From the IMG/VR virus record IMGVR_UViG_3300025030_001138, positions 1 through 22,760 of that record: a stretch of DNA of 22,760 bases. One strand, 5' to 3'. The translations under genes and the position numbers were made by a program. Shown here one piece after another: positions 12 through 21,724 of this stretch. Origin of the DNA: a virus. The notes below the pieces were generated by a model. That model did not search any database. It saw nothing but the letters and a program-made list of their open reading frames with translations, and was not told the origin of the DNA. Each line of letters starts with the position of its first letter. Within the stretch, counting starts at the first letter, position 1.

Positions 12-959
12 TTATGACTTATTAAAGCAATCTTTATGGGTATGATGTGAGCGACAGACTAAAATCTGGTGGCTCATATTATCCGCTTCATTTAAATATA
101 AAGAAACCATTAAATTATGATGAATAAATAAGTCTTTCTGATCAAATTCTACACCGCAAACTTCACAAAAATTATACCCAAACTCATCTAATTGCAATTG
201 GAGCAACATTTCTCTATTCAAATCCTGATTACACCTAGCTTGTATTATAAGATCTCTCTGCGATTTTGGCAGAAATTTTGCTTTAAAAACATCACACTCC
301 TGCTTACATTTTTGTGAATCATATAAGTGACATTCTTTCCCATCACTAGTATTAAGTGATGTTATCCTGTTACTTACTTCCCTTACTGTAGGATAAAAAT
401 ATTTACCACATTTAAAACATTTACATAACATGAAGCCATGCTCATTTTCAATTGGAGACTCCTCAACTGTTAACCTGTCAGCAAACGTTTTAAATAACGC
501 CTTGCCATTAGCATATTTTTTCTTTTTTAAAACCAATTCGTCTTTATTTTCAATTCTATATTTCTTATTATATTCCGATTTTTTATCTTTATTGACCTCG
601 TATAACTTACGCGCCGCCAATAATTTCTTCTCTCTGTTTCTATAATACGAAAGTCTTTCCTTTTCCCTTATTCTGTCTCTATTTAATTCTCTCTTTTCCT
701 TACTTTTCTTAGAAATATATTCCTTATTCTTTTTAGTGTAATTCCTTTGTCTTTCTTTTATATATTCTGAATTTTCTAAATATACTTCTTTGCTTTTCTT
801 CAAAAATATTTCTCTATTATTTTCATAATATTTTCTTTTATTTTTAGAACAACATTCTTTGCAGTCAGTCCTCCTCCCATCACTAGAACCTTCTCTTCTG
901 TAAAACTCTCTTAACTCCTTTTCTTCTCCACATTTTGTACAAACTTTCGTTTCTTCCAT
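12..959 (-). CDS. HNH endonuclease with N-terminal zinc finger (homing-type cassette)
   Basis: 315-residue protein. The N-terminus has a four-cysteine finger (C7, C10, C33, C36) of the type seen in free-standing phage HNH nucleases. Residues about 40-150 are a Lys/Glu-rich, probably helical linker built on repeated YYENN/KKY-like units. The C-terminal third has a second CxC/CxxC cluster (from about 180) and then an HNH core: a CEVCG knuckle, an IHHN catalytic pair, and the closing HQILVC and HHTHKDC ligands. The start is firm because GGAGG lies 8 bases upstream. It follows the portal gene and is preceded by a structured leader shared with the second cassette at 5311-6250, to which the protein is clearly paralogous. 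A selfish homing role is inferred; a packaging-associated HNH role is possible but such proteins are usually smaller. Confidence 0.88.
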   Translation of the reverse strand: MEETKVCTKCGEEKELREFYRREGSSDGRRTDCKECCSKNKRKYYENNREIFLKKSKEVYLENSEYIKERQRNYTKKNKEYISKKSKEKRELNRDRIREKERLSYYRNREKKLLAARKLYEVNKDKKSEYNKKYRIENKDELVLKKKKYANGKALFKTFADRLTVEESPIENEHGFMLCKCFKCGKYFYPTVREVSNRITSLNTSDGKECHLYDSQKCKQECDVFKAKFLPKSQRDLIIQARCNQDLNREMLLQLQLDEFGYNFCEVCGVEFDQKDLFIHHNLMVSLYLNEADNMSHQILVCRSHHTHKDCFNKS

Positions 960-981
960 TTTAATACCTCCGATAGGTATC

Positions 982-1054
982 CCGAGTTAAATTATTAGCA
1001 CAGAAATGAGACTCGGATTTTCTCACTTGTCGGGGATCAGCCTATCTGTGCTAA
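982..1054 (-). ncRNA. Structured leader RNA of the HNH cassette, copy 1 (nested stems plus pseudoknot)
   Basis: Outer stem: 995-1004 pairs with 1045-1054 (10 bp, TTAGCACAGA with TCTGTGCTAA). Inner stem: 1007-1011 pairs with 1021-1025 (TGAGA with TCTCA), closing a 9-base loop. The loop edge 1011-1016 is complementary to 982-987 (ACTCGG with CCGAGT), giving a pseudoknot. The element begins 4 bases after the portal stop and ends about 22 bases before the HNH start codon, so it lies in the HNH 5' leader. Copy 2 at 6186-6250 has different stem sequences but the same pairings and spacings. It could regulate translation, cleave or splice; I do not recognise it as a known family. Confidence 0.6.
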
Positions 1055-1058
1055 ACTA

Positions 1059-2444
1059 TTATCTATTTAAAATTTCCTTCATCTTCTCAGGTGACGATAC
1101 AACATTCCCTTCGCCTGTGCCTTCGGCAATACTAGCTAAAAGGCCAGATGGGGTTGTAAAGTTAACTGGGATAAAAGGCTGTTTAAACACGCCACCAAGT
1201 TCAGGTAATCCAAGTTTATCTCTTTCTTCGTCTACTGAAGTGATTGAGGTTTGGATGTGTTTTACGCTTTGATTCAACTCGAACAATTTATCAGATGGTA
1301 TACAATTATCATAAGCGACGAAAAGCTTTTCGTCATAACGCCAAATCATCTTCTCATTTAGTTTTTCTTCAATCCTTCTAAGCCTTGGCTGAATAGTAAA
1401 CTGCATAAATGTCGCAATGGCAGCATCAGCATTGTTCCTATTGGCCTCTGAGCTGTACATACCCAATGCTTGCCCAAACGCATTAAGCACAGCCTCTTTG
1501 ATCCTGTCGCGCCCTCCTAGGTATGACATATCCTTTGGAGAATTGTTCGTGAAAGGTTTGTACTTCAACCCATGATCAAGGAGGGGCATAGAACCACCTT
1601 TTGACGCACCGCCTAACATTTGTTTGATCTCAATTTTCAGACGTTCAAACTCATGGTCTCCTAACTCGGAATCAGTTTCAAAAACACCATTTAGATTATT
1701 TCCCCCATTCCTGAAAATCGCGGCCTCATATTCATTAATGGATTTAGCTAATCCATATTCTTCCGCGATACTAGTGACGGGGCTACTTCCATAATATTGA
1801 TTCTTTGGGTTGGGCATTTTAAAATGGATAATTGAGCGTTCTGATAAATCAATCTCTTCTGTACTTTTTATATACTTGTACCCAGATATAAACTTCTTAG
1901 CATCTGGCATTATTTTACAATTTTGAGGGGGGATCAACCAAATCTCCCTTGGGACCCCAAATTTATCCTCTAATATATGCCAGAAAGCGTTTCCTGTCAA
2001 CTCCTGATACAGCTGAGTCATTTCGAACAAATCAAAGGAATTTACAAATGGGTTTACATTTGTTTTCAGATCTAAAAACGGATGGTCAAGCACCTCTTCG
2101 AAGGATGATGCCTTTCTAATAGCAGGAATATTGTTCAGGAATGGATTTTCTCTTATGAATCTTTCCTGTTTTATGTCAACTGCTTTCGTTTGTACTCGTT
2201 TTACCCTTTGGCTTTTGTTGTTCTTCGCAACATAAAGTCTCAATGGTGTATTCGCTACAGTCGAAGCATTCTTATTCGATGCTACATAAATCCACGACCT
2301 GTAGCTGTTTATCATTGCATAAAAATCTTCATCACTATGCAATTCCCGCCCATATTGAAATGGGTATAAGTATGGTAAAATACTCCCCTTCCTCTTTCCC
2401 CCGGCAGCCTTTAACTGTACTTCATATGAAAATGGATTAGCCAT
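1059..2444 (-). CDS. Phage portal protein, HK97 family
   Basis: 461 residues, the usual length for HK97-type portals (Phage_portal, PF04860). It forms the dodecameric ring at the capsid vertex through which terminase packages DNA. Recognisable segments are a SYRSWIYVASNKNA-like N-terminal helix, the LTGNAFWHI and IWLIPPQ strands, the IIHFKMPNP then YYGSSPV segment, the EAAIFRNGGNNLNGVF stretch, and the late MYSSEANRNNADAA and FMQFTIQPRLRRIEEKLNE helices. The ATG is preceded by AAGGA at about 7 bases and sits 3 bases after the methyltransferase stop, so the genes are co-transcribed. No lesion is seen. Confidence 0.95.
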   Translation of the reverse strand: MANPFSYEVQLKAAGGKRKGSILPYLYPFQYGRELHSDEDFYAMINSYRSWIYVASNKNASTVANTPLRLYVAKNNKSQRVKRVQTKAVDIKQERFIRENPFLNNIPAIRKASSFEEVLDHPFLDLKTNVNPFVNSFDLFEMTQLYQELTGNAFWHILEDKFGVPREIWLIPPQNCKIMPDAKKFISGYKYIKSTEEIDLSERSIIHFKMPNPKNQYYGSSPVTSIAEEYGLAKSINEYEAAIFRNGGNNLNGVFETDSELGDHEFERLKIEIKQMLGGASKGGSMPLLDHGLKYKPFTNNSPKDMSYLGGRDRIKEAVLNAFGQALGMYSSEANRNNADAAIATFMQFTIQPRLRRIEEKLNEKMIWRYDEKLFVAYDNCIPSDKLFELNQSVKHIQTSITSVDEERDKLGLPELGGVFKQPFIPVNFTTPSGLLASIAEGTGEGNVVSSPEKMKEILNR

Positions 2445-2447
2445 ATG

Positions 2448-3182
2448 TTATCCTTCGATTGTATTTGGTATAATTTGAGTATTGTTGATTCTATCTTTAG
2501 CTATATTAAAATAGGTTAAATCTTTTTCTATTCCTATAAATTTTCTACTTAAGTTTTTACATGCTACGCCTGTTGTGCCACTGCCCATTGTAAAATCTAA
2601 TACGGTTTCTGATTCATTTGTATAAGTTTTAATTAAGTATTCCATTAATGCTACTGGTTTTTGGGTGGGATGGATGCCACGTTCTTGTTTAATATACAAT
2701 GTTCTCGTTGGCAATCTCGTCCCATTGTTCACTGTCTCAGTTTGCCTCATTATTGCCCCACTTGTTTCTTTTACTCTATTCGTTTTATCTCTTATAATAT
2801 GATAAGGTTTTCCAGAGGACATTTCTGGGTTATACATTATTTTGCCCCCGAAAACAATTATATTCTCTATATTATTCAGAGGTCTTATTTTTGACATAAA
2901 AGGGTCAACACCTTGAGGTTTAACCCACACCCAGTCATATTTGTACATTTTTATATTACTCATCCGTAATACACTACTAAATGGTTCACTACCAAACAAA
3001 ACAATAGCTCCATTCGGTTTAATCACCCGCTTTAGCTGCTCCCACATAGCCTCAAACGGGATAACTGAATCCCATTTACAAGCAGTAGTCCCGTAAGGAG
3101 GATCAGTGATAACAGCATCTACACTCCCATCAGGAATACTTTTCATTACTTCTAAACAATCACCATGATATAGATTTATCAT
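2448..3182 (-). CDS. DNA adenine-N6 or cytosine-N4 methyltransferase, beta class
   Basis: 244 residues. Motif IV DPPYGT lies near residues 27-32 and the S-adenosylmethionine-binding motif I (LDFTMGSGTTG) lies near 195-205. The order IV-TRD-X-I is that of beta-class amino-methyltransferases such as those of the N6_N4_Mtase family (PF01555). HPTQKP at about 171-176 is the usual motif X region. It would methylate phage DNA, probably to evade host restriction; the target site cannot be read from sequence. No partner nuclease is adjacent, so it is probably an orphan. The ATG directly follows the TAA of the upstream gene (TAAATG), suggesting coupled translation. Confidence 0.93.
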   Translation of the reverse strand: MINLYHGDCLEVMKSIPDGSVDAVITDPPYGTTACKWDSVIPFEAMWEQLKRVIKPNGAIVLFGSEPFSSVLRMSNIKMYKYDWVWVKPQGVDPFMSKIRPLNNIENIIVFGGKIMYNPEMSSGKPYHIIRDKTNRVKETSGAIMRQTETVNNGTRLPTRTLYIKQERGIHPTQKPVALMEYLIKTYTNESETVLDFTMGSGTTGVACKNLSRKFIGIEKDLTYFNIAKDRINNTQIIPNTIEG

Positions 3183-3614
3183 TTACTGTTCCATGATTTT
3201 CTTAAATTGATTAAATCTATTACGAACAAAATCTTCGTGCATTATTTTCTCATTCCAAATTTTACTTTCAATATCATAATATTCGCAAACAACCGATATT
3301 TTATCTTCGTTGTAATTTAAAGAGCATTCGCCGTATTCGTTCTGGCAGAAGTCTTTGATATAAAAATTTATTCCTTCATATACAAACATTAACCCTTTAG
3401 GGAATTCCATTTCAAGTCGTTTAGCGAAGAAATAAAAGTTATCTTCTTTGTTGTTCAGGAGGATAGTTAAATTAAAAGTTAAGTAGTTAAATACTTTAAT
3501 TAACCTTTGTGTTATAAGTTGGAGTGGTTTTAATAACTTGTTTGTTATATTTGTTAAGTTTTTGGTTTTCAATCGATCATCCTTATGTGTGGAACGGCTG
3601 GGGAGTAGAAACAC
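3183..3614 (-). CDS. Hypothetical protein between terL and methyltransferase (start uncertain)
   Basis: The longest frame gives 143 residues from a GTG at 3614 that overlaps terL by 46 bases and has no ribosome site. Its first 50 codons come from AT-rich, repetitive sequence (recurring TTAA and GTTAA words at about 3470-3560) and look non-coding. The convincing part starts near residue 53, with an acidic protein containing FAKRLEMEFPKG and CEYYDIESKIWNE. The ATG at 3410 is an alternative start, but it also lacks a clear Shine-Dalgarno sequence. I recognise no family. Its tight link to the methyltransferase suggests it belongs to the same transcript. Confidence 0.55.
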   Translation of the reverse strand: MFLLPSRSTHKDDRLKTKNLTNITNKLLKPLQLITQRLIKVFNYLTFNLTILLNNKEDNFYFFAKRLEMEFPKGLMFVYEGINFYIKDFCQNEYGECSLNYNEDKISVVCEYYDIESKIWNEKIMHEDFVRNRFNQFKKIMEQ

Positions 3615-5311
3615 ATTCTTAAAGCGGCAAATTTATCATCACTTTTGCCGCTTAATTTCTTCTTAATCGTTTTTTTATCACTTACTTTGATTTTGCCAGA
3701 ATTAGGATCTTCTTTATAGTCATAACATAACATCTGTTCCTTCAATTCTGCATCTTCAGGTAACATAGCTGCTGGTTCTTTTTTTAACCATTCAGCCACC
3801 GCCCATGCAAGTTCATCCCTTGTCAGGGCCAGCTTTCCAAATTCACACTTTTTATTACTTGGAGAACTGACATATACCTTTCTAATGTTGAAATGAAGTC
3901 TCTTCATTTCTTTGTGACACATAGGACATTGAAATATTGTAGTATCAAGATAGGTTTTATTAACTCCTTCGCAACTAATATTTTCACACTGCCAATAAAA
4001 CATTGAGCTTACTTTCGGCGGAATAGCTGCACCGATACCATCTGCCTCAACCTGCGCCTGTAATGCATTAAGATCACAATAAGTTTGAGCTAATCTATCC
4101 GCAGATCTATCAAGATTTATCCCAGACCACGGAATAAAACTAGAAACAAAATTTCCATATTTTATTGCAATACACGAGTCATCTGCGCCTTCATCTGCGA
4201 CATCCATCCCGAGTATGGGTCTAATTCCATTTGTTGCCTGATCGCCATATTGCGCTTTATACAATTTCCATCTTGTAAACGCATTATCAATGTCAACTTC
4301 ATTAAATAGTGCATTTTGACTAGCGGCAGGGTATCGACCTAGTGTAATCGTTGCAAATTGAGAATCTTTTATTCTTCTCCATCCTCCCTCCAATGGTGGG
4401 TAAATTTTACCTGAGCTTGAAACACCTACAGCGCCTACTAGGCAAGATGGAACTTCAAAACAATTAATCTCATCGGGTTCTTCATCTTCTCTAACTGGAA
4501 CAGTCCATTCCATAATACGTTGAATCGTTTTATCCCGGCTAACTGCCCCATGTATTACTTCTTCACCAGTGACAACATTCGGGTGATTCAGTGCATTTAA
4601 ATGAACTATATGTCCTAATTTATCTTTCCAAACCTTATAAGTATAACCAGATTTTTGGCGGGGGTTATATAACATTAAAAGACGAACGTGACTACCGCTA
4701 AGGCAGCCGTCAATCGCTTCAAAAATTTCATCGGGACACCCGTCAGCCTCATCTACTATGTACAGTTGGTATTTGGCGTGCTTGCCGCTGAAGGACGCTT
4801 TTCTGCGTTCTGGGGTTCCAGATGTAGGTATTGCCTTCCCGATTAAAAAATGTTTTAAATTTATATCATCGTCATCATCCTTTGCATTAACATCATCAGT
4901 TATTTTTAACGTAGTCAATACATGATTTTTAAATAATGATTTTTTATACCTATAAAAAACATTTGCTATTTCACTAAACAACCCCTGTTTTAAATTTTCT
5001 TCTGGTGGAGCCGCAGCACAAATTACCTGAGAATCAGGGAAGCATAAATAAAACCAAGCTGCCAAATGAGAAGCGATAAATGTTTTGCCAGTCCCATTCG
5101 ATGACATAGCCAAGGTAATTTTATTGTCCTTTACACTATTTGCCACCCGAATTAAATCATCATATAAATTTTTAACACCTAATTCTTTTTCTAAAAATTC
5201 AATCGGATTTTCTTGGTATTTTTTTAAGTCTCCATGGAGTAAATTAGCTACTTGGTCTTCTCCAAATGCACTTATTAAATAATCTAATGCTTGATCGTCT
5301 AAATTTGTCAT
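3569..5311 (-). CDS. terL: Terminase large subunit (ATPase and nuclease)
   Basis: 580 residues from the ATG at 5311. The ATPase domain has Walker A MSSNGTGKT (about 69-77), Walker B LYIVDEAD (183-190) and a coupling LMLYNP segment (212-217). The RNase H-like nuclease domain has GMDVADEG (D370), EADGIG (D424) and a late SDDKFAAL acidic pair (D558, D559), which together would bind the two metals. A CX4C-X14-CX2C cluster (C442, C447, C462, C465) sits inside the nuclease domain and looks like an inserted zinc ribbon. The ATG overlaps the preceding TAA (TAATG) with AAAGG upstream; a TTG two codons earlier is a weaker start. It powers DNA packaging through the portal. Confidence 0.95.
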   Translation of the reverse strand: MTNLDDQALDYLISAFGEDQVANLLHGDLKKYQENPIEFLEKELGVKNLYDDLIRVANSVKDNKITLAMSSNGTGKTFIASHLAAWFYLCFPDSQVICAAAPPEENLKQGLFSEIANVFYRYKKSLFKNHVLTTLKITDDVNAKDDDDDINLKHFLIGKAIPTSGTPERRKASFSGKHAKYQLYIVDEADGCPDEIFEAIDGCLSGSHVRLLMLYNPRQKSGYTYKVWKDKLGHIVHLNALNHPNVVTGEEVIHGAVSRDKTIQRIMEWTVPVREDEEPDEINCFEVPSCLVGAVGVSSSGKIYPPLEGGWRRIKDSQFATITLGRYPAASQNALFNEVDIDNAFTRWKLYKAQYGDQATNGIRPILGMDVADEGADDSCIAIKYGNFVSSFIPWSGINLDRSADRLAQTYCDLNALQAQVEADGIGAAIPPKVSSMFYWQCENISCEGVNKTYLDTTIFQCPMCHKEMKRLHFNIRKVYVSSPSNKKCEFGKLALTRDELAWAVAEWLKKEPAAMLPEDAELKEQMLCYDYKEDPNSGKIKVSDKKTIKKKLSGKSDDKFAALRMCFYSPAVPHIRMID

Positions 5312-6166
5312 TAACAACCTTTATGTTCATGGCATTCATCACATACTATTATTTGATGGCTCATATCATCAGCCATTGTATGGTCTTTGCCAACCATTAT
5401 GTTGTGATGGATGATTAATTCTTCTCGCGGAAGAGGCCTGCCGCATTTTTCACAGTAGGTATAGCCAAATTCGTCTTCTTGGTTATCCAGTAATGCTTTG
5501 CGATTAATGGGCTGGTTGCAACGTGCTCTTTTTGTTATATTCCTCAATTCTCTTGGCGTTGTTCTTGCTCTGTATACGCCACACGATAATTTATGCTCAT
5601 CACAACAATATAAATGAATTTCTTTCCCATCGTTATTATTATTTAACGAATTAAGTCTATTTGATACCTGTCCGTTATTTGGGATAAAATACTCTTTGCA
5701 ATGATAACATCTACACATAATAAATCCGTTTTCATCGCAAATTGGCTCCTCATCAATTGTTAATTTATTTTTATATGTTTCATAAAGAGCTGAGCTATTC
5801 CTATATTTTTTAGATCTCTATAGCACATATTCCTTGTTATTTTCGTAATATTTTTTACCTCTTTCTTGGAATAAACTTTTATTCTCTTCTCTTCTCTTCT
5901 CTTCTAATTTTTTCATCACTTAATATCTTATCTCTATTTTTCTCGTACCACTTCTTACCGCCTATTTTATGCTTTTCTTTATTATTTTCGTAATATTTTT
6001 TACCGCTATCAGACTTATGAACATTTGGAGAACTTTTTAAATAAATTTGTCTACATTCTTTACATAAAGTGTCCTTTCCAAATTTACAGCCTTTATGATT
6101 GACAAAAGCATCTAATTCCTTTTCTTCACCACAAACTCTGCACTTCTTCGTTTTAATCTCTTCCAT
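5311..6166 (-). pseudogene. Broken second HNH endonuclease cassette
   Basis: This is a paralogue of the protein at 12-959. The N-terminal frame (ATG 6166) carries the CRVCGEEKEL finger and the YYENNKEKH linker, and stops at 5879 after a run of Arg/Glu codons in the pentanucleotide repeat 5882-5905. The remainder continues one base later in frame: KKYYENNKEY, then an in-frame TAG at about 5819-5821, then RSKKYRN through to the zinc cluster and HNH core (CEKCGRP, IIHHN, HQIIVCDECHEHKGC). Both breaks lie in the linker. Adding one repeat unit or removing two would restore the frame, but the TAG would remain. A 135-residue C-terminal piece from ATG 5718 could still be made. The final TAA overlaps the terL start. 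Confidence 0.85.
5882..5905. repeat. TTCTC pentanucleotide tandem repeat, 4.8 units
   Basis: A 24-base array inside the HNH pseudogene. It encodes alternating Arg and Glu on the minus strand, and the frame is lost immediately after it. Because the unit is 5 bases long, any change of a single unit shifts the frame, which is the architecture of a slippage-prone contingency repeat. Confidence 0.9.
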
Positions 6167-6185
6167 CTACGCCTCCTTCAAGCGT

Positions 6186-6250
6186 TCCTTATTACTAAAA
6201 GTGGAAATAGAGCAAGGATTTCTCTACTTGTCGGGTGCCCCCTATCCACT
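6186..6250 (-). ncRNA. Structured leader RNA of the HNH cassette, copy 2
   Basis: Outer stem: 6200-6205 pairs with 6245-6250 (AGTGGA with TCCACT). Inner stem: 6208-6212 pairs with 6222-6226 (TAGAG with CTCTA), with a 9-base loop. Loop bases 6214-6218 (AAGGA) pair with 6186-6190 (TCCTT). As in copy 1, two As separate the outer and inner stems on one side. The long junction (18 versus 19 bases) shares the plus-strand word CTTGTCGGG, and the loop shares GGATTT. All three helices differ in sequence from copy 1, yet each keeps its pairing. It lies 20 bases upstream of the HNH pseudogene start codon. Confidence 0.6.
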
Positions 6251-6270
6251 ACACCATACACCTACCAAAT

Positions 6271-13840: not shown

Positions 13841-14050
13841 GTTGGGATTAAGTGTTATGAATAAATTAGAATTAATAAATTTTGGGTCGAGTATAAGAGC
13901 TTGTATCAGGTGTAATTGTTGAGAAAGTGTAGAGGGAAAAGGAAGGGTGGATTGGTGTTAGGATTTAGTTGAAAATTTTAAAATCTTAAGCGTGATACTC
14001 GACCTGCCTAACAGGGGTATGGGGTCGCCTAAAATCGTACCGGCTATCCC

Positions 14051-14228
14051 CACGTCACCACGTCACCACGTCACCACGCCACCACGCCACCACGTCACCA
14101 CGTCACCACGTCACCACGCCACCACGCCATGCGTCACCACGCCACCACGTCACCACGCCACCACGTCACCACGCCCTGCGTCACCACGCCTCACGCCCTG
14201 CGTCACCACGCCACCACGTCACCGCGTC
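14051..14228. repeat. Octamer minisatellite (CACGTCAC / CACGCCAC type)
   Basis: About 180 bases made almost wholly of ACCACGTC and ACCACGCC octamers in mixed order, with rare degenerate units containing ATGCGTC, CTGCGTC or TCACGCC. It is strikingly GC-rich within AT-rich DNA. An open frame runs through it, but only as Thr/Pro/Arg/His repeat translation. Around it, 13748-14512 holds no gene I can support. Confidence 0.9.
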
Positions 14229-14237
14229 ATGATGCAC

Positions 14238-14254
14238 TGCTATCATATATAGCA
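14238..14254. other. Short hairpin after the octamer array
   Basis: TGCTAT (14238-14243) and ATAGCA (14249-14254) pair around a 5-base loop. No T-run follows. Function unknown. Confidence 0.45.
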
Positions 14255-14363
14255 GACGGCTCTAATCCATGATTTTGAGTATCTGCATTTATTTTTATTG
14301 CTTACTCTCATTTTTAAAAATATCTAATGATTAGTCATACTTACGATACTACTTATTTTAAAA

Positions 14364-14383
14364 TAATTTAATCGATTAAATTA
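14364..14383. promoter_or_regulatory. 20-bp perfect palindrome, possible operator
   Basis: TAATTTAATCGATTAAATTA reads the same on both strands. It lies 130 bases before the first gene of the GC-rich block, in AT-rich non-coding DNA. A dimeric repressor site is plausible, although AT-richness raises the chance of a random palindrome. Confidence 0.4.
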
Positions 14384-14432
14384 AATGTAACAATATCAGG
14401 TACTTATGGGATGCTGGATTGATTGTGGTTGC

Positions 14433-14460
14433 TTGACGTGGTTGGGGGGCGTGGTATGAA
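14433..14460 (+). promoter_or_regulatory. Possible promoter of the GC-rich block
   Basis: TTGACG (14433-14438), a 16-base G-rich spacer and TATGAA (14455-14460), about 50 bases before the next start codon. Both hexamers are imperfect. Confidence 0.4.
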
Positions 14461-14512
14461 TAGTCATCTGCTTTATTTATGTTTCTTTTAATTCTTTAAC
14501 AGGAGAATGGCC

Positions 14513-14947
14513 ATGAAAATCACGACCACCGAAACCGAGTTTTTTGACTCCTGGGAGGGCGACGGAATGCGCCCAGGGGATAACGTCCGGTCGGAGAGCT
14601 GGACCGGGCAATGGATAACAATTGACCTGGAAGGGGATGAGAACCCCTTCCTACTGGCAGCGATCAAAGAGTTTGACCGCCGTCAGAGCATCAACACCAC
14701 GCCCGAGAGCGTGGAGGCGCGGCTTATGGCCCGCGCGGGCCACTTGGCGTGGTGCGCCGCCTGGGCCACATACTACCACCAGGACCAGGGAGGGTGGCAT
14801 GTCGGGACTGATTACGCGCCCGACGACCGACCGGAGGTTTACGATTCCGGCGGAAACTTTTTAGGTTTCCTCCCGAAAAGCGTAGTCCCTGGCGACTACG
14901 CGACACTCTCGCCGTTGGTTGACGAGATGTTCGAGGATTGCGACTGA
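14513..14947 (+). CDS. Hypothetical acidic protein, first gene of the GC-rich block
   Basis: 144 residues from the ATG at 14513; AGGAG ends 7 bases before it, whereas an ATG at 14507 is too close to that site. The protein is acidic, with SWEGDGMRPGDNV, a WCAAWATYYHQDQGGWHVG segment rich in Trp and His, and a PLVDEMFEDCD end. GC content and codon choice (many GGC, CGC and GCC) differ sharply from the upstream AT-rich genes, suggesting separate origin. No family is recognised. An intrinsic terminator follows directly. Confidence 0.7.
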   Translation: MKITTTETEFFDSWEGDGMRPGDNVRSESWTGQWITIDLEGDENPFLLAAIKEFDRRQSINTTPESVEARLMARAGHLAWCAAWATYYHQDQGGWHVGTDYAPDDRPEVYDSGGNFLGFLPKSVVPGDYATLSPLVDEMFEDCD

Positions 14948-14957
14948 CCGCCACTGC

Positions 14958-14998
14958 AAGGCCGATTGACTCCAATACGGGGTTGATCGGCCTTTTTT
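14958..14998 (+). terminator. Intrinsic terminator
   Basis: AAGGCCGAT (14958-14966) pairs with ATCGGCCTT (14986-14994) and is followed by an unbroken T-run to 14998. The stem is GC-rich and starts 10 bases after the stop of the preceding gene. Confidence 0.88.
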
Positions 14999-15040
14999 AT
15001 TTGGAGCAGCAAGCAAACAATCTAACACAAGGAGACCACA

Positions 15041-15295
15041 ATGCAGACAATCACAGTAGAGTACAGCACGTCAGTTTTTACCCCGGCCGGATGGCGTAAT
15101 GAGACCGTAACCGCGACACTTGAGCTGATCAGCCCCAAGCGGGGCCGCGTGCTGTGCGTAACCGATATCGGTGGCAATGGCACCTCTGGCTACGGTTCCA
15201 GAACCGGAGCCAAACGGCAGAGGTATCACGTTGGAGGGGTTGCTATGCGGGAAGAGGGCAAAATTAAAAATTTATCGGCGTGCTGTGTACTCTAA
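15041..15295 (+). CDS. Hypothetical protein in the GC-rich block
   Basis: 84 residues. ATG 15041 is preceded by AAGGAGACCACA. The sequence is basic and beta-rich (TVEYSTSVFTPAGWRNETVT, then RGRVLCVTDIGG and GAKRQRYHVGGVAMREEGKI). The last residues (NLSACCVL) overlap the next ORF by 16 bases, and the tail may have been altered from an older, longer version. No family is recognised. Confidence 0.6.
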   Translation: MQTITVEYSTSVFTPAGWRNETVTATLELISPKRGRVLCVTDIGGNGTSGYGSRTGAKRQRYHVGGVAMREEGKIKNLSACCVL

Positions 15296-15489
15296 CAACT
15301 AAGCCGTCTATTTTGCCATCCCAGCCCGTAGCATGGCAGCATACGCCATGGTATCAGGCACGTATCCGATGTACAACTGACTGGATACGGCTGTTAGCCT
15401 ATGATCCGGCAAAGGATTGTTATCTTTGCCGCACCGGAAAAACGCAAGAGATTTTTTGGTCGGACGAGCTGGCCGACTTTTGCGACTGA
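15280..15489 (+). CDS. Small conserved protein, paralogue of the gene at 20898 (start uncertain)
   Basis: Up to 69 residues from a GTG at 15280, but no ribosome site supports it; a TTG near 15310 is another candidate. The core PWYQARIRCTTDWIRLLAYD, then CYLCRTGKTQEIFWSDEL, matches the protein at 20898-21068 (FYQARIRCEDIWVR, WYLCRSGKEKEIFFADEL) closely over about 47 residues to the C-terminus. Function is unknown. The CxxC could bind a metal but there is only one such pair. This copy uses GC-rich codons and the other AT-rich ones. Confidence 0.65.
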   Translation: MLCTLTTKPSILPSQPVAWQHTPWYQARIRCTTDWIRLLAYDPAKDCYLCRTGKTQEIFWSDELADFCD

Positions 15490-15518
15490 TATTAACTCAA
15501 ACTAATAAAGGGGATGAA

Positions 15519-15791
15519 ATGAAAAACCAGACAATTGAACAGGTAAAAAGAGCAATTAGGGAGCCCTTCGCATGGCCCGGTGGATATCCTGTTTACACTA
15601 TCATGCAGGATGGGGAGATTCTTTGTTCTGTATGTGCAAAGGACAATTTTTCTGCTATTGTCCACGCGACAAAAACGCATGACAGATCAGGATGGGAGGC
15701 CGCCGGTGCTGATATTTTGTGGGAAGGGGAGGAACATTGCGCCCACTGTGGAAAGACGCTCGAATCGGCTTATGGTGACACAGAAAAATGA
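15519..15791 (+). CDS. Two-knuckle zinc-binding protein (conserved hypothetical)
   Basis: 90 residues from the ATG at 15519, chosen for its AAGGGGATGAA ribosome site; a longer frame from 15417 would overlap the previous gene. It reads EPFAWPGGYPVYTIMQDGEI, LCSVCAKDN, ILWEGEEHCAHCGKTLESAYG. Two CxxC knuckles about 50 residues apart probably hold one zinc. From memory this is a widespread hypothetical protein of proteobacterial phages and integrative elements. Its stop overlaps the start of a membrane peptide (ATGA). Confidence 0.75.
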   Translation: MKNQTIEQVKRAIREPFAWPGGYPVYTIMQDGEILCSVCAKDNFSAIVHATKTHDRSGWEAAGADILWEGEEHCAHCGKTLESAYGDTEK

Positions 15792-15862
15792 AACTCAAAA
15801 TATTTGCAATCCGGTTGGTTATCGCTCTGGCAATAGTTGCCACACTCAGCATAGATATGTAG
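15788..15862 (+). CDS. 24-residue single-helix membrane peptide
   Basis: MKLKIFAIRLVIALAIVATL followed by SIDM: a short basic N-terminus and one hydrophobic helix, so probably an inner-membrane micropeptide. Its ATG overlaps the previous TGA, so translation is coupled. A similar one-helix peptide follows the paralogous gene in the second operon (21077-21169), which strengthens this call. Confidence 0.6.
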   Translation: MKLKIFAIRLVIALAIVATLSIDM

Positions 15863-15872
15863 GGGGATGACC

Positions 15873-16127
15873 ATGAGGCAACTATACCGCATCAAAACTA
15901 ATCAAATTGTCAGTCAGGAATCAGTCAAAGAGGCCATGCTGGAGCTGTTGCCGTACGCTATGGCCGATGAGATCACCGTCATTCCGGGCCGCTATATCCA
16001 CGGCATTATAATCGCGCCCAATTGGATAGAGGATGGATTCAGGTTTTCGTCCAGCAGGCAGGCTAAGCTCAGGCGCGGATTGAAACGGCAGACGGGCCTG
16101 GAAAACCTAACCGTGAAATTCGTTTGA
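15873..16127 (+). CDS. Hypothetical basic protein
   Basis: 84 residues from the ATG at 15873, preceded by AGGGGG at 6 bases; an ATG at 15867 lies too close to that site. Segments are LYRIKTNQIVSQESVKEAML, IPGRYIHGIIIAPNWIEDGF and a basic C-terminus (QAKLRRGLKRQTG). No family is recognised. A TAGCGC/GCGCTA inverted repeat (16135-16165) follows without a T-run. Confidence 0.6.
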   Translation: MRQLYRIKTNQIVSQESVKEAMLELLPYAMADEITVIPGRYIHGIIIAPNWIEDGFRFSSSRQAKLRRGLKRQTGLENLTVKFV

Positions 16128-17136: not shown

Positions 17137-17724
17137 CTAAAACCTTATCTTATACCCTTTCTTGCTACTCAAAAAACCTTTAGGTAATTCAGGATGCAAT
17201 AATTCATGGCAAGGAATACATACAGCAATATAGTTTTCTTCAATCTCTTTTCCGTCATTTATAGGTGAAATTAAATGATGAGTATGCTCAGAAGGGAAAT
17301 TATTGCATTTTTCGCATATAGGATGCTTTTCTCTATATGCTTTCATCCTGTTTATATCTCTTATCTTATTCCATTTAATACCGATTGCTTCAAGTTGATC
17401 TATAAGATAAGAACAATCAAAATCTTTATTATGAAACTTTCCTTTAATATTTCCGATTGTCTTGAGAAAGGAAATTGATTTTATACCGTACTTGTCAAAG
17501 GCTTTATTAATTTTCTCAATCGCTTTTTTCTCTTCAACAGTTATAGATATTACTGATTTTTTGAGTTTAGGAAAAGAATTTGATAAATAGAAATTATCTA
17601 TATAAATTTTTTGAGTTTTACCAAGAGGCAATTTTAAATGGAATTTTCCTATAGCTGTTATTTGTTGCTTTATCGTAAAGTAAAACGGCTTTTCATTTAT
17701 AAAAAACAATTCTTTTATTTTCAT
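17137..17724 (-). CDS. HNH endonuclease paired with an HTH regulator
   Basis: 195 residues from the ATG at 17724, with GGAAGGTGA upstream. A longer frame to 17796 would run back through the regulator gene. The HNH core is at the C-terminus: ICEKCNNFPSEHTHHL, then NDGKEIEENYIAVCIPCHEL and LHPEL. The first 120 residues are lysine-rich and unrelated by eye to the other two HNH proteins of the window, and there is no N-terminal zinc finger. The regulator gene upstream ends only 4 bases before this start, so they form one transcript. A mobile or restriction-like nuclease under its own repressor is plausible. Confidence 0.82.
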   Translation of the reverse strand: MKIKELFFINEKPFYFTIKQQITAIGKFHLKLPLGKTQKIYIDNFYLSNSFPKLKKSVISITVEEKKAIEKINKAFDKYGIKSISFLKTIGNIKGKFHNKDFDCSYLIDQLEAIGIKWNKIRDINRMKAYREKHPICEKCNNFPSEHTHHLISPINDGKEIEENYIAVCIPCHELLHPELPKGFLSSKKGYKIRF

Positions 17725-17728
17725 ACAT

Positions 17729-17971
17729 TCACCTTCCATCAATAAAGCCGTCAATATGCTCAGGGCAATGCTTTTCCAGATAAAGCAATAGGTCAATCAT
17801 GGCTTGTACTGGCTTGCTGGCTTTCCGTTTCCCTGTTTCAATAGCTGATAGATTGCACCGATTGATTCCTAATACTTTAGAAAAATCACTTTGCGAAAAA
17901 CCTAGTGTTTCCCTTACCTTTTTAATATCCATCTTTGAGCATCTTAAATTAAGTTGTATCATATGATACAT
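17729..17971 (-). CDS. XRE-family helix-turn-helix regulator
   Basis: Up to 80 residues. The HTH is DIKKVRETLGFSQSDFSKVL followed by GINRCNLSAIETGKRKAS, the classic XRE/Cro pattern (HTH_3, PF01381) with recognition helix CNLSAIETG. ATG 17971 has AGGGG at 5-6 bases, but the family normally starts near the ATG at 17932, which lacks a ribosome site. A palindromic operator overlaps the upstream start region, which suggests autorepression of this gene and the HNH gene. Confidence 0.82.
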   Translation of the reverse strand: MYHMIQLNLRCSKMDIKKVRETLGFSQSDFSKVLGINRCNLSAIETGKRKASKPVQAMIDLLLYLEKHCPEHIDGFIDGR

Positions 17972-17976: not shown

Positions 17977-18076
17977 CCCTGATATAATCCTATGAAATAA
18001 TCCTATCCTATCCACAAACAACTGCCCTTTCTCAATTCTGGAAGTCTTATTGATTGCCTTTGTGGATTATGGCGTA

Positions 18077-18134
18077 GGGTGCAAGGGTGCAAGGGTGCAA
18101 GGGTGCAAGGGTGCAAGGGTGCAAGGGTGCAAGG
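18077..18134. repeat. GGGTGCAA octamer array, 7.25 units
   Basis: Seven exact head-to-tail copies plus two bases, in non-coding DNA upstream of the second rightward operon. The region 17972-18486 (about 515 bases) holds this array, palindromes, the CGTAC cluster and a promoter, but no gene I can support. Confidence 0.95.
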
Positions 18135-21178: not shown

Positions 21179-21724
21179 ATGAATACTGCTGTTCCTCTTT
21201 ACAAAGTTTTGACCCCTGAAAATACTGGAGGATATTCGGATTTTGTTTGGCCTTTACCTATTAATGGAAAACCTGGAAAATGGGTAAAGATAGAAAACGA
21301 TCTTAAAATGTGTTCTAACGGGTTTCATCTAACTGCGAATCCAGAAAGGTGGTGGAAGCATGGTGCAAGGATTTTCCGGGCTGAGTACAAGGGCGAAATA
21401 CTGGTTGAAAACTCAAATAAAATTTGTTGCCGGGAAGCAAGGTTAATTTGTGAAATTACAGAAAATGATCCTTGTTTTCTAATTAATTCCCTCATCCGTT
21501 GTTATGTTTTAATCGGGATGAAACAAAGAGGGGAAATTGAACAAATTGACCTGGAAGGCGCAGACCTGTATGGCGCAAACCTGAGAAACGCAGACCTGAG
21601 AAACGCAAACCTGAGAAACGCAGACCTGAGAAACGCAAACCTGAGAGGCGCAAACCTGGAAGGCGCAGACCTGTATGGCGCAAACCTGAGAGGCGCAATA
21701 AATTATAAAGAGGCCAAAAAATGA
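21179..21724 (+). CDS. Pentapeptide-repeat protein with an N-terminal GFH domain
   Basis: 181 residues. The first 110 residues ([20 protein letters not shown], then [26 protein letters not shown]) resemble a phage domain with a CxxGFH signature, related by eye to DUF7666-type proteins. Residues about 122-176 are eleven A(D/N)LxX pentapeptides ([15 protein letters not shown]), a right-handed beta-helix about three coils long (PF00805). Long pentapeptide proteins such as Qnr mimic DNA; this one is too short to assume that. GAGGTGAAAAG precedes the ATG, and the TGA overlaps the AAA ATPase start. Confidence 0.82.

What the first reader, a model, noticed from the sequence alone, without database searches (positions are those of the whole stretch)
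982..6250. Same pseudoknotted leader RNA before both HNH cassettes, with compensatory changes
Seen: the elements at 982-1054 and 6186-6250 both have an outer stem, two As, an inner 5-bp stem with a 9-base loop, an 18-19 base junction with CTTGTCGGG, and a loop segment pairing with a strand about 25-30 bases upstream of the HNH start codon. The outer stems (CACAGA versus AGTGGA), inner stems (TGAGA versus TAGAG) and pseudoknot strands (CTCGG versus AAGGA) differ in sequence, yet each still pairs. That is covariation in all three helices. Known: homing endonucleases travel with introns or as free cassettes. Inference: the RNA is a functional part of the mobile unit, perhaps a ribozyme, a translational switch or a splicing relic. 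It does not fit the hammerhead, HDV or group I cores as I remember them.
Basis: partly seen in the sequence, partly recalled or inferred. Interest (0 to 1): 0.88.

Follow-up and report, generated by a model that had tools for sequence, protein, structure and literature searches.

The report
Shared leader RNA of homing endonucleases
The two phage genes for DNA-cutting 'homing' enzymes are each preceded by the same folded RNA leader, a distant form of an orphan RNA family (int-alpA) that we find in front of dozens of unrelated homing-enzyme genes in other phages, apparently as a portable switch controlling how they are translated.

Summary
The window holds exactly two copies of this architecture, at the stated places on the minus strand. 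A mechanical scan finds none in 60 random windows. Both leaders match Rfam int-alpA (RF02996) end to end, below its cutoff. A covariance model built only from 34 gammaproteobacterial int-alpA RNAs ranks them first and second in the window. One built only from other phages' leaders gives E=2e-10 and 2e-8. Pattern scans of IMG/VR gave 77 non-redundant phage leaders with intact helices. At least 37 of 68 downstream proteins carry nuclease domains of unrelated superfamilies (HNH, GIY-YIG, endonuclease VII, PD-(D/E)XK-like). Paired positions co-vary strongly.

The same loop can therefore pair upstream (pseudoknot) or with the ribosome-binding site, at nearly equal predicted energy. This holds even where the loop is not anti-Shine-Dalgarno-like.

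Best reading: a portable cis-acting translational leader of mobile-element genes. Ribozyme and splicing-relic readings have no support. The link to homing endonucleases and the two-partner loop appear new. No experiment was run.

The parts
957..1054 (-). Leader RNA 1, complete, from P1 5' arm to the start codon of HNH gene 1
   Evidence: RF02996 match 981-1052, 24.4 bits; R1 957-1052 E=3.3e-4; R2 E=2.4e-8
1045..1054 (-). P1 5' arm TTAGCACAGA (pairs with 995-1004)
   Evidence: sequence; P1 co-varies in 46 phage leaders
1026..1044 (-). UAG + P2 region + CCGACAAG core; UAGGCUGAUCCCCGA identical to int-alpA RNAs L067 and L099
   Evidence: alignment
1007..1025 (-). P3 TGAGA/TCTCA with 9-nt loop AAATCCGAG (1012-1020)
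   Evidence: sequence; scan
995..1004 (-). P1 3' arm TCTGTGCTAA
   Evidence: sequence
982..986 (-). Pseudoknot strand 1 CTCGG (pairs with loop CCGAG)
   Evidence: sequence; permutation test on the class
963..981 (-). P4 hairpin GATACCT-ATCGG-AGGTATT; loop and 3' arm hold copy 2 (TCGGA, 969-973) and the Shine-Dalgarno GGAGG (967-971)
12..959 (-). HNH-type homing endonuclease 1 (315 aa), directly after the portal gene
   Evidence: PHROG endonuclease match; orthologue with own leader in L222, 43% identical
6164..6250 (-). Leader RNA 2, complete, from P1 5' arm to the start codon of HNH gene 2
   Evidence: RF02996 match 6186-6252, 28.2 bits; R1 E=1.5e-4; R2 E=2.1e-10
6245..6250 (-). P1 5' arm AGTGGA (pairs with 6200-6205)
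   Evidence: sequence
6227..6244 (-). UAG + P2 (GGG-GGCA-CCC) + GACAAG core
   Evidence: sequence; CM alignment
6208..6226 (-). P3 TAGAG/CTCTA with 9-nt loop AAATCCTTG (6213-6221)
   Evidence: sequence; scan
6200..6205 (-). P1 3' arm TCCACT
   Evidence: sequence
6186..6190 (-). Pseudoknot strand 1 AAGGA (pairs with loop TCCTT)
   Evidence: sequence
6169..6185 (-). P4 hairpin ACGCTT-GAAGG-AGGCGT; copy 2 AAGGA (6174-6178) overlaps the Shine-Dalgarno AAGGAGG (6172-6178)
5311..6166 (-). HNH gene 2, broken into two ORFs in different frames (5879-6166, 95 aa; 5311-5718, 135 aa)

Best explanation
Each element is the structured 5' leader of a homing-endonuclease cassette and a distant member of the int-alpA RNA class (membership shown by comparison). 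Its fold is P1 enclosing P2 and P3 with conserved UAG and GA(C/U/A)AAG joints, then a linker, a pseudoknot strand (PK1), and a small hairpin P4 carrying the Shine-Dalgarno just before the AUG (shown by comparison). The P3 loop has two mutually exclusive partners: PK1, and a second copy of PK1 inside the ribosome-binding site (shown statistically). Inferred mechanism: when the loop is held by PK1, the binding site is left to P4 and to ribosomes. When the loop pairs with copy 2 it covers the Shine-Dalgarno and translation is off. The leader therefore sets the level or timing of endonuclease synthesis and goes with the cassette, often with its own promoter. What tips the balance (co-transcriptional folding, a terminating ribosome from the gene just upstream, a protein or a ligand) is unknown.
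For: Full-length RF02996 matches for both. R1, built without any window sequence, ranks them 1 and 2 with the next hit at E=0.31. R2, built from phages only and excluding the window, gives E=2e-10 and 2e-8. Reciprocal hits: R2 finds 14 of 56 int-alpA loci and R1 finds 27 matches in the 46 phage loci. Covariation in 46 phage leaders: 183 double-change cells versus 65, 0/500 shuffles; in 34 int-alpA: 122 versus 33, 0/500. Loop-PK1 Watson-Crick run 5.38 versus 3.21 with shuffled loops (z 19, 60 distinct loops); loop-copy2 4.67 versus 3.35 (z 12.7); still z 9.4 in 32 loops that are not anti-Shine-Dalgarno-like; same in int-alpA, z 9.1 and 7.6. Duplex energies of the two partners are nearly balanced: -7.7 and -7.2 kcal/mol on average, window -8.1/-7.0 and -5.7/-5.6. 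P4 has at least 4 bp in 48 of 57. A TATAAT-like -10 box in 38 of 76 versus 15 of 76 shuffled, ending 11-14 nt before UAG in 25 of the 38. Fixed place before a start codon in 73 of 77.
Against: No experiment. Both matches are below the Rfam gathering score (24-28 versus 35.8 bits). The leader also precedes genes that are not nucleases. About half the leaders lack an obvious promoter. Minimum-energy folds of the two window leaders are not better than shuffles, and no pseudoknot energy was computed. Copy 2 could be a protein-binding repeat or ribosome standby site rather than a competing pairing partner. The direction of the switch (which state is on) is not shown.
Confidence: 0.68

Rival explanations
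1. Purely structural translational repressor of the T4 type: the leader simply buries the Shine-Dalgarno in hairpin P4 and keeps endonuclease synthesis low. The P1-P3 pseudoknot only stabilises it or protects the mRNA 5' end, with no switching.
For: P4 holds the Shine-Dalgarno in nearly every member. Hairpins that sequester the ribosome-binding site are established for I-TevI, I-TevII, I-TevIII, segB and mobE (PMC2988022).
Against: It does not explain the conserved UAG and GAYAAG joints, nor why the loop complement is kept twice when it is not Shine-Dalgarno-like. Where a promoter is visible it lies upstream of P1, so promoter-derived transcripts keep the whole structure, unlike the T4 late promoters that bypass the hairpin.
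Confidence: 0.15
2. The RNA is bound by a ligand or a protein (riboswitch or protein-operated leader). The conserved core is the binding site and the loop exchange is the read-out. This is compatible with the best explanation and names its trigger.
For: Strongly conserved unpaired core and a few discrete P2 loop types (UAGCU, UCGCU, UGAUC, GAC, GGCCA) shared by int-alpA and phage leaders. Two near-isoenergetic states.
Against: The cargo genes have no common metabolic theme. No ligand or binder is known. Core conservation in the phage set is partly imposed by the search patterns.
Confidence: 0.3
3. Self-cleaving ribozyme or relic of a group I intron.
For: Compact pseudoknotted three-way junction next to homing endonucleases, which often ride in introns.
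Against: No Rfam ribozyme or intron match, even with permissive thresholds. No split host gene: element 1 starts just after the intact portal stop codon. No hammerhead CUGANGA core. Fixed distance to a start codon.
Confidence: 0.03
4. DNA-level element: a folded single-strand end or recombination site of the mobile unit rather than an RNA.
For: It travels with mobile genes of unrelated kinds and contains direct and inverted repeats.
Against: One copy only, always 5' of the ORF, phased to the Shine-Dalgarno and often to a promoter. G-U pairs outnumber A-C at the same P1 places, 11 to 3 (small numbers).
Confidence: 0.04
5. Guide-like RNA used by the downstream nuclease, by analogy with the omega RNA (HEARO) of IscB.
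For: RNA directly upstream of HNH genes.
Against: Downstream nucleases belong to unrelated superfamilies and many downstream genes are not nucleases. No HEARO match. The pairing loop is matched to the mRNA's own ribosome-binding site.
Confidence: 0.02

Closest known systems
int-alpA RNA (Rfam RF02996)
   Same: P1/P2/P3 junction, UAG and CGA(x)AAG joints, 9-nt loop, pseudoknot strand, place just before a start codon, P4 with Shine-Dalgarno and second copy
   Different: Window leaders score 24-28 bits against a cutoff of 35.8; GAC/GAU instead of GAA in the core; inner stem one pair longer; HNH genes instead of unknown ORFs between int and alpA; AT-rich phage setting
Ribosome-binding-site hairpins of T4-like phage homing endonucleases (I-TevI, segB, mobE; PMC2988022)
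   Same: Leader structure of a phage homing endonuclease that involves the Shine-Dalgarno
   Different: Those are described as hairpins that late promoters bypass; here one conserved pseudoknotted RNA class recurs before unrelated nuclease families, with the promoter, where visible, upstream of the structure
repZ activator pseudoknot of IncI-alpha plasmid ColIb-P9 (PMC8383071)
   Same: Works like it: a loop pairs with a strand just upstream of the ribosome-binding site and controls translation
   Different: No antisense RNA or leader peptide seen here; no sequence relation tested; here the loop complement is duplicated inside the binding site

Membership tests
int-alpA RNA (RF02996) | Score at or above the Rfam gathering score of 35.8 bits | tested here: not met
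   28.2 and 24.4 bits; none at gathering
int-alpA RNA (RF02996) | Full-length match to the consensus structure (P1, P2, P3) | tested here: met
   model positions 1-71 of 71 in both; R1, built from int-alpA only, finds both. P2 of element 1 is weak
int-alpA RNA (RF02996) | Conserved UAG and CGAAAAG joint sequences | tested here: met
   UAG and CGACAAG in both; one position changed
int-alpA RNA (RF02996) | Loop pairs with a strand 3' of P1 (pseudoknot) | tested here: met
   CCGAG/CTCGG and TCCTT/AAGGA; class-wide z 19 and 9
int-alpA RNA (RF02996) | Genomic place between an integrase gene and alpA | tested here: not met
   After the portal gene, and after a short ORF following TerS; before HNH genes
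T4-type RBS-sequestering hairpin of homing endonucleases | Shine-Dalgarno inside a stem-loop before the endonuclease AUG | tested here: met
   P4 in both leaders
T4-type RBS-sequestering hairpin of homing endonucleases | Late promoter placed so that its transcript lacks the inhibitory strand | tested here: not met
   -10 boxes in the class lie upstream of P1, so the transcript keeps the structure; phage late promoters other than sigma70-like are not covered
Group I intron / self-cleaving ribozyme | Match to a catalytic core model | tested here: not met
   No Rfam match
Group I intron / self-cleaving ribozyme | Self-cleavage or splicing activity | not testable with these tools
   needs in vitro transcript
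HEARO / IscB omega RNA | HEARO model match and IscB-type nuclease downstream | tested here: not met
   No HEARO match in the window; downstream proteins are PHROG endonucleases and no Pfam match names an IscB-type domain

The most novel reading that the evidence does not exclude
A single portable RNA switch, with a conserved core that senses a common cue of infection or host state, has been captured by homing endonucleases of at least four unrelated nuclease superfamilies and by the unknown cargo genes of integrative islands, and times their translation by moving one loop between an upstream decoy and the ribosome-binding site.
Probability: 0.3. Interest if true: 0.92.

Novelty: new variant of a known kind. 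Interest (0 to 1): 0.76.

Why it matters
int-alpA RNA is filed by Rfam as an sRNA, and no function for it was found in the papers searched here. Showing that its architecture recurs as a 5' leader of phage homing endonucleases gives it a gene context, a location at the ribosome-binding site and a testable mechanism. It also suggests that selfish nucleases of unrelated ancestry share one regulatory RNA module, which bears on how homing endonucleases enter transcription programmes of new hosts without harming them. The two-partner loop can be tested by simple compensatory mutants.

Tried and rejected
Protein search with HNH 1 in IMG/VR returned only near-identical phages, and tblastn against named phages only weak N-terminal matches. 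BLASTN with leader 1 against phages gave nothing. A strict two-leader pattern gave only the same phage plus a chance hit, and a looser one only chance hits besides the known leaders. The genome contigs pattern scan gave 33 hits, all chance on inspection, but supplied genome handles. The RF02996 whole-record search missed both leaders because of its fast first look; small-region scans found them. Empty-site test: relatives of the portal gene (57% and 48% identical) carry their own leader (weak, E=0.014, in the second) and HNH-type gene at the same place, so no cassette-free site was found. Ribozyme, intron relic, omega-RNA and DNA-site readings were considered and set aside (see rivals). A start-codon or pseudoknot misassignment in the first automatic parse was corrected. 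Wrong orientations were corrected. The original int-alpA paper (doi 10.1093/nar/gkx699) is not held.

Full report
OBSERVATION. The two elements are in the sequence as described, on the minus strand, each ending just before an HNH-type gene. A mechanical scan for the same architecture finds exactly these two places on both strands of the window, and none in 60 Markov-random windows. Folding energy alone would not have shown them: z is -1.1 and 0.04.

IDENTITY. Rfam at gathering thresholds is silent. Small-region scans match both elements to RF02996, int-alpA, over all 71 model positions, including the UAG, CGAxAAG, the loop and the pseudoknot strand: 28.2 and 24.4 bits against a cutoff of 35.8. 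To test this without circularity I collected int-alpA RNAs from Gammaproteobacteria, where 41 of 369 genomes have one, and built model R1 from 34 of them. R1 ranks the two window leaders first and second (E=1.5e-4, 3.3e-4; next 0.31; filters off). The P2 region of leader 1, UAGGCUGAUCCCCGA, is letter for letter that of int-alpA RNAs L067 and L099.

HOMOLOGUES NEAR HOMING ENDONUCLEASES. R1 found a third leader in a related phage contig, before a CxxC-repeat protein. Patterns made from the three then found about a hundred loci in IMG/VR. After parsing, 77 non-redundant leaders had P1 and P3 intact and 73 had an ORF at the expected distance. By Pfam at E<0.01, at least 37 of 68 downstream proteins carry nuclease or homing-endonuclease domains: 23 HNH/NUMOD-type, 6 GIY-YIG plus L150 (NUMOD1) and L190 (MUG113, placed with GIY-YIG from general knowledge), 4 endonuclease VII, 2 PD-(D/E)XK-like, one of them weak. 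Others are tail, helicase, Rha-like, RepA-like or unknown proteins. The genes downstream of int-alpA in bacteria show no nuclease family. Two more diverged phages carry a leader and an HNH-type gene at the same place after the portal gene: L222 clearly (E=1e-11), L223 weakly (E=0.014), with portals 57% and 48% identical to the window's. The L222 endonuclease is 43% identical to HNH 1. Searches of bacterial genomes with R2, a model free of the DNA patterns but trained on their hits, found leaders in 2 of 291 genomes of the class of L022, 1 of 200 of the class of L043 and 3 of 190 of the class of L031 (one weak hit, L225, looks doubtful). L022, L043 and L031 are records titled Clostridia, Pontibacillus and Alphaproteobacteria. 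One of these leaders precedes an HNH protein (L224) and one a zinc-ribbon protein (L233); the third group's precede unknown ORFs.

COVARIATION. On 46 phage leaders, 183 cells change on both sides of a pair against 65 in shuffles (0/500), and sliding the partner strand destroys the signal. On 34 int-alpA RNAs the figures are 122 against 33. R2, built from the phage leaders without the window, scores the window leaders at E=2.1e-10 and 2.4e-8, and finds 14 of 56 int-alpA loci. R1 finds 27 matches in the 46 phage loci. The UAG, P2 and GAYAAG letters of the phage set are partly fixed by the search patterns and are not counted as evidence.

Between the pseudoknot strand and the AUG lies a hairpin P4: at least 4 bp in 48 of 57, mean stem score 4.89 against 3.38 in shuffles. 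Its loop or 3' arm holds the Shine-Dalgarno and a second copy of the pseudoknot strand. With loops shuffled among leaders, the loop-PK1 complementarity is z 19 and the loop-copy2 complementarity z 12.7. In the 32 leaders whose loop does not look like an anti-Shine-Dalgarno, copy 2 still stands at z 9.4, and int-alpA RNAs show the same (z 9.1 and 7.6). Clear examples: L115 loop AATCATTCA with TGAATGA and GAATGA; L110 loop TCGTCTA with TAGACGA and TAGAC; L176 loop TCACCG with CGGTGA twice. The two partners are nearly equal in predicted duplex energy, as expected for an exchange. Relatedness between leaders was reduced by using distinct loops only, but was not modelled.

PROMOTER AND PLACE. Half of the phage leaders have a TATAAT-like -10 box (38 of 76 against 15 shuffled), mostly ending 11-14 nt before UAG, so that transcription would begin at the 5' arm of P1. 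Many leaders start a few nucleotides after the stop codon of the upstream gene: 6 nt for leader 1 after the portal gene, about 6-12 nt for many int-alpA RNAs. Window leader 1 has only a weak -10-like GATAAT and leader 2 none that is clear.

MECHANISM. Shown: structure class, covariation, duplicated loop complement, location at the ribosome-binding site. Inferred: loop-PK1 pairing leaves the ribosome-binding site free and loop-copy2 pairing closes it, so the leader tunes or times translation. Unknown: the trigger and which state dominates. This works like the repZ activator pseudoknot (PMC8383071) and serves the same need as the T4 endonuclease hairpins (PMC2988022), but it is a member of neither.

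NOVELTY. The library search found one paper that names int-alpA, as a list entry only, and none linking it to homing endonucleases. The founding paper is not held, and most subscription journals are not in the library, so prior description elsewhere cannot be excluded. I rate it a new variant of a known RNA class with a newly seen architecture and gene association.

Noticed in passing
window 5719-5878: HNH gene 2 is interrupted: its two halves (5879-6166 and 5311-5718) are in different frames, so it is a decayed gene or a sequence error, although its leader is intact.
   Followed up: partly
window 17137-17796: A third HNH-type protein (phrog_144, Pfam HNH 0.003) on the minus strand, preceded by an XRE-like ORF; it has no leader of this class by model R2.
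   Followed up: partly
window 14001-16000: G+C jumps from about 0.33 to about 0.5 for 2 kb and the gene content changes; possibly acquired DNA or a chimeric assembly.
   Followed up: no
window 14050-14229 and 18076-18134: Two arrays of 8-base tandem repeats (CCACGTCA x 23, 80% matches; AGGGTGCA x 7.4, perfect).
   Followed up: no
window 21549-21698: 15-base repeats coding for a pentapeptide-repeat stretch ([14 protein letters not shown]...) at the end of ORF 21179-21724.
   Followed up: no
L017-L021, L055-L106: In bacterial islands int-alpA RNA often sits immediately after the upstream ORF (an integrase where annotated) and 13-25 nt before the start codon of highly diverse unknown ORFs, so its Rfam label 'sRNA' looks doubtful; it looks like a 5' leader.
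   Followed up: yes
L168, L172, L204, L175, L171, L167: Phage leaders of the same class before genes that do not look like nucleases (tail-chaperone-like, helicase, Rha-like, RNA polymerase alpha-CTD-like); either relics of lost cassettes or direct users of the leader.
   Followed up: no
L109 (2094 and 6453), L148 (7837-7925 and 8923-9005): Two leaders within 1-4.5 kb on the same phage contig, suggesting repeated invasion by cassettes that share the leader.
   Followed up: no
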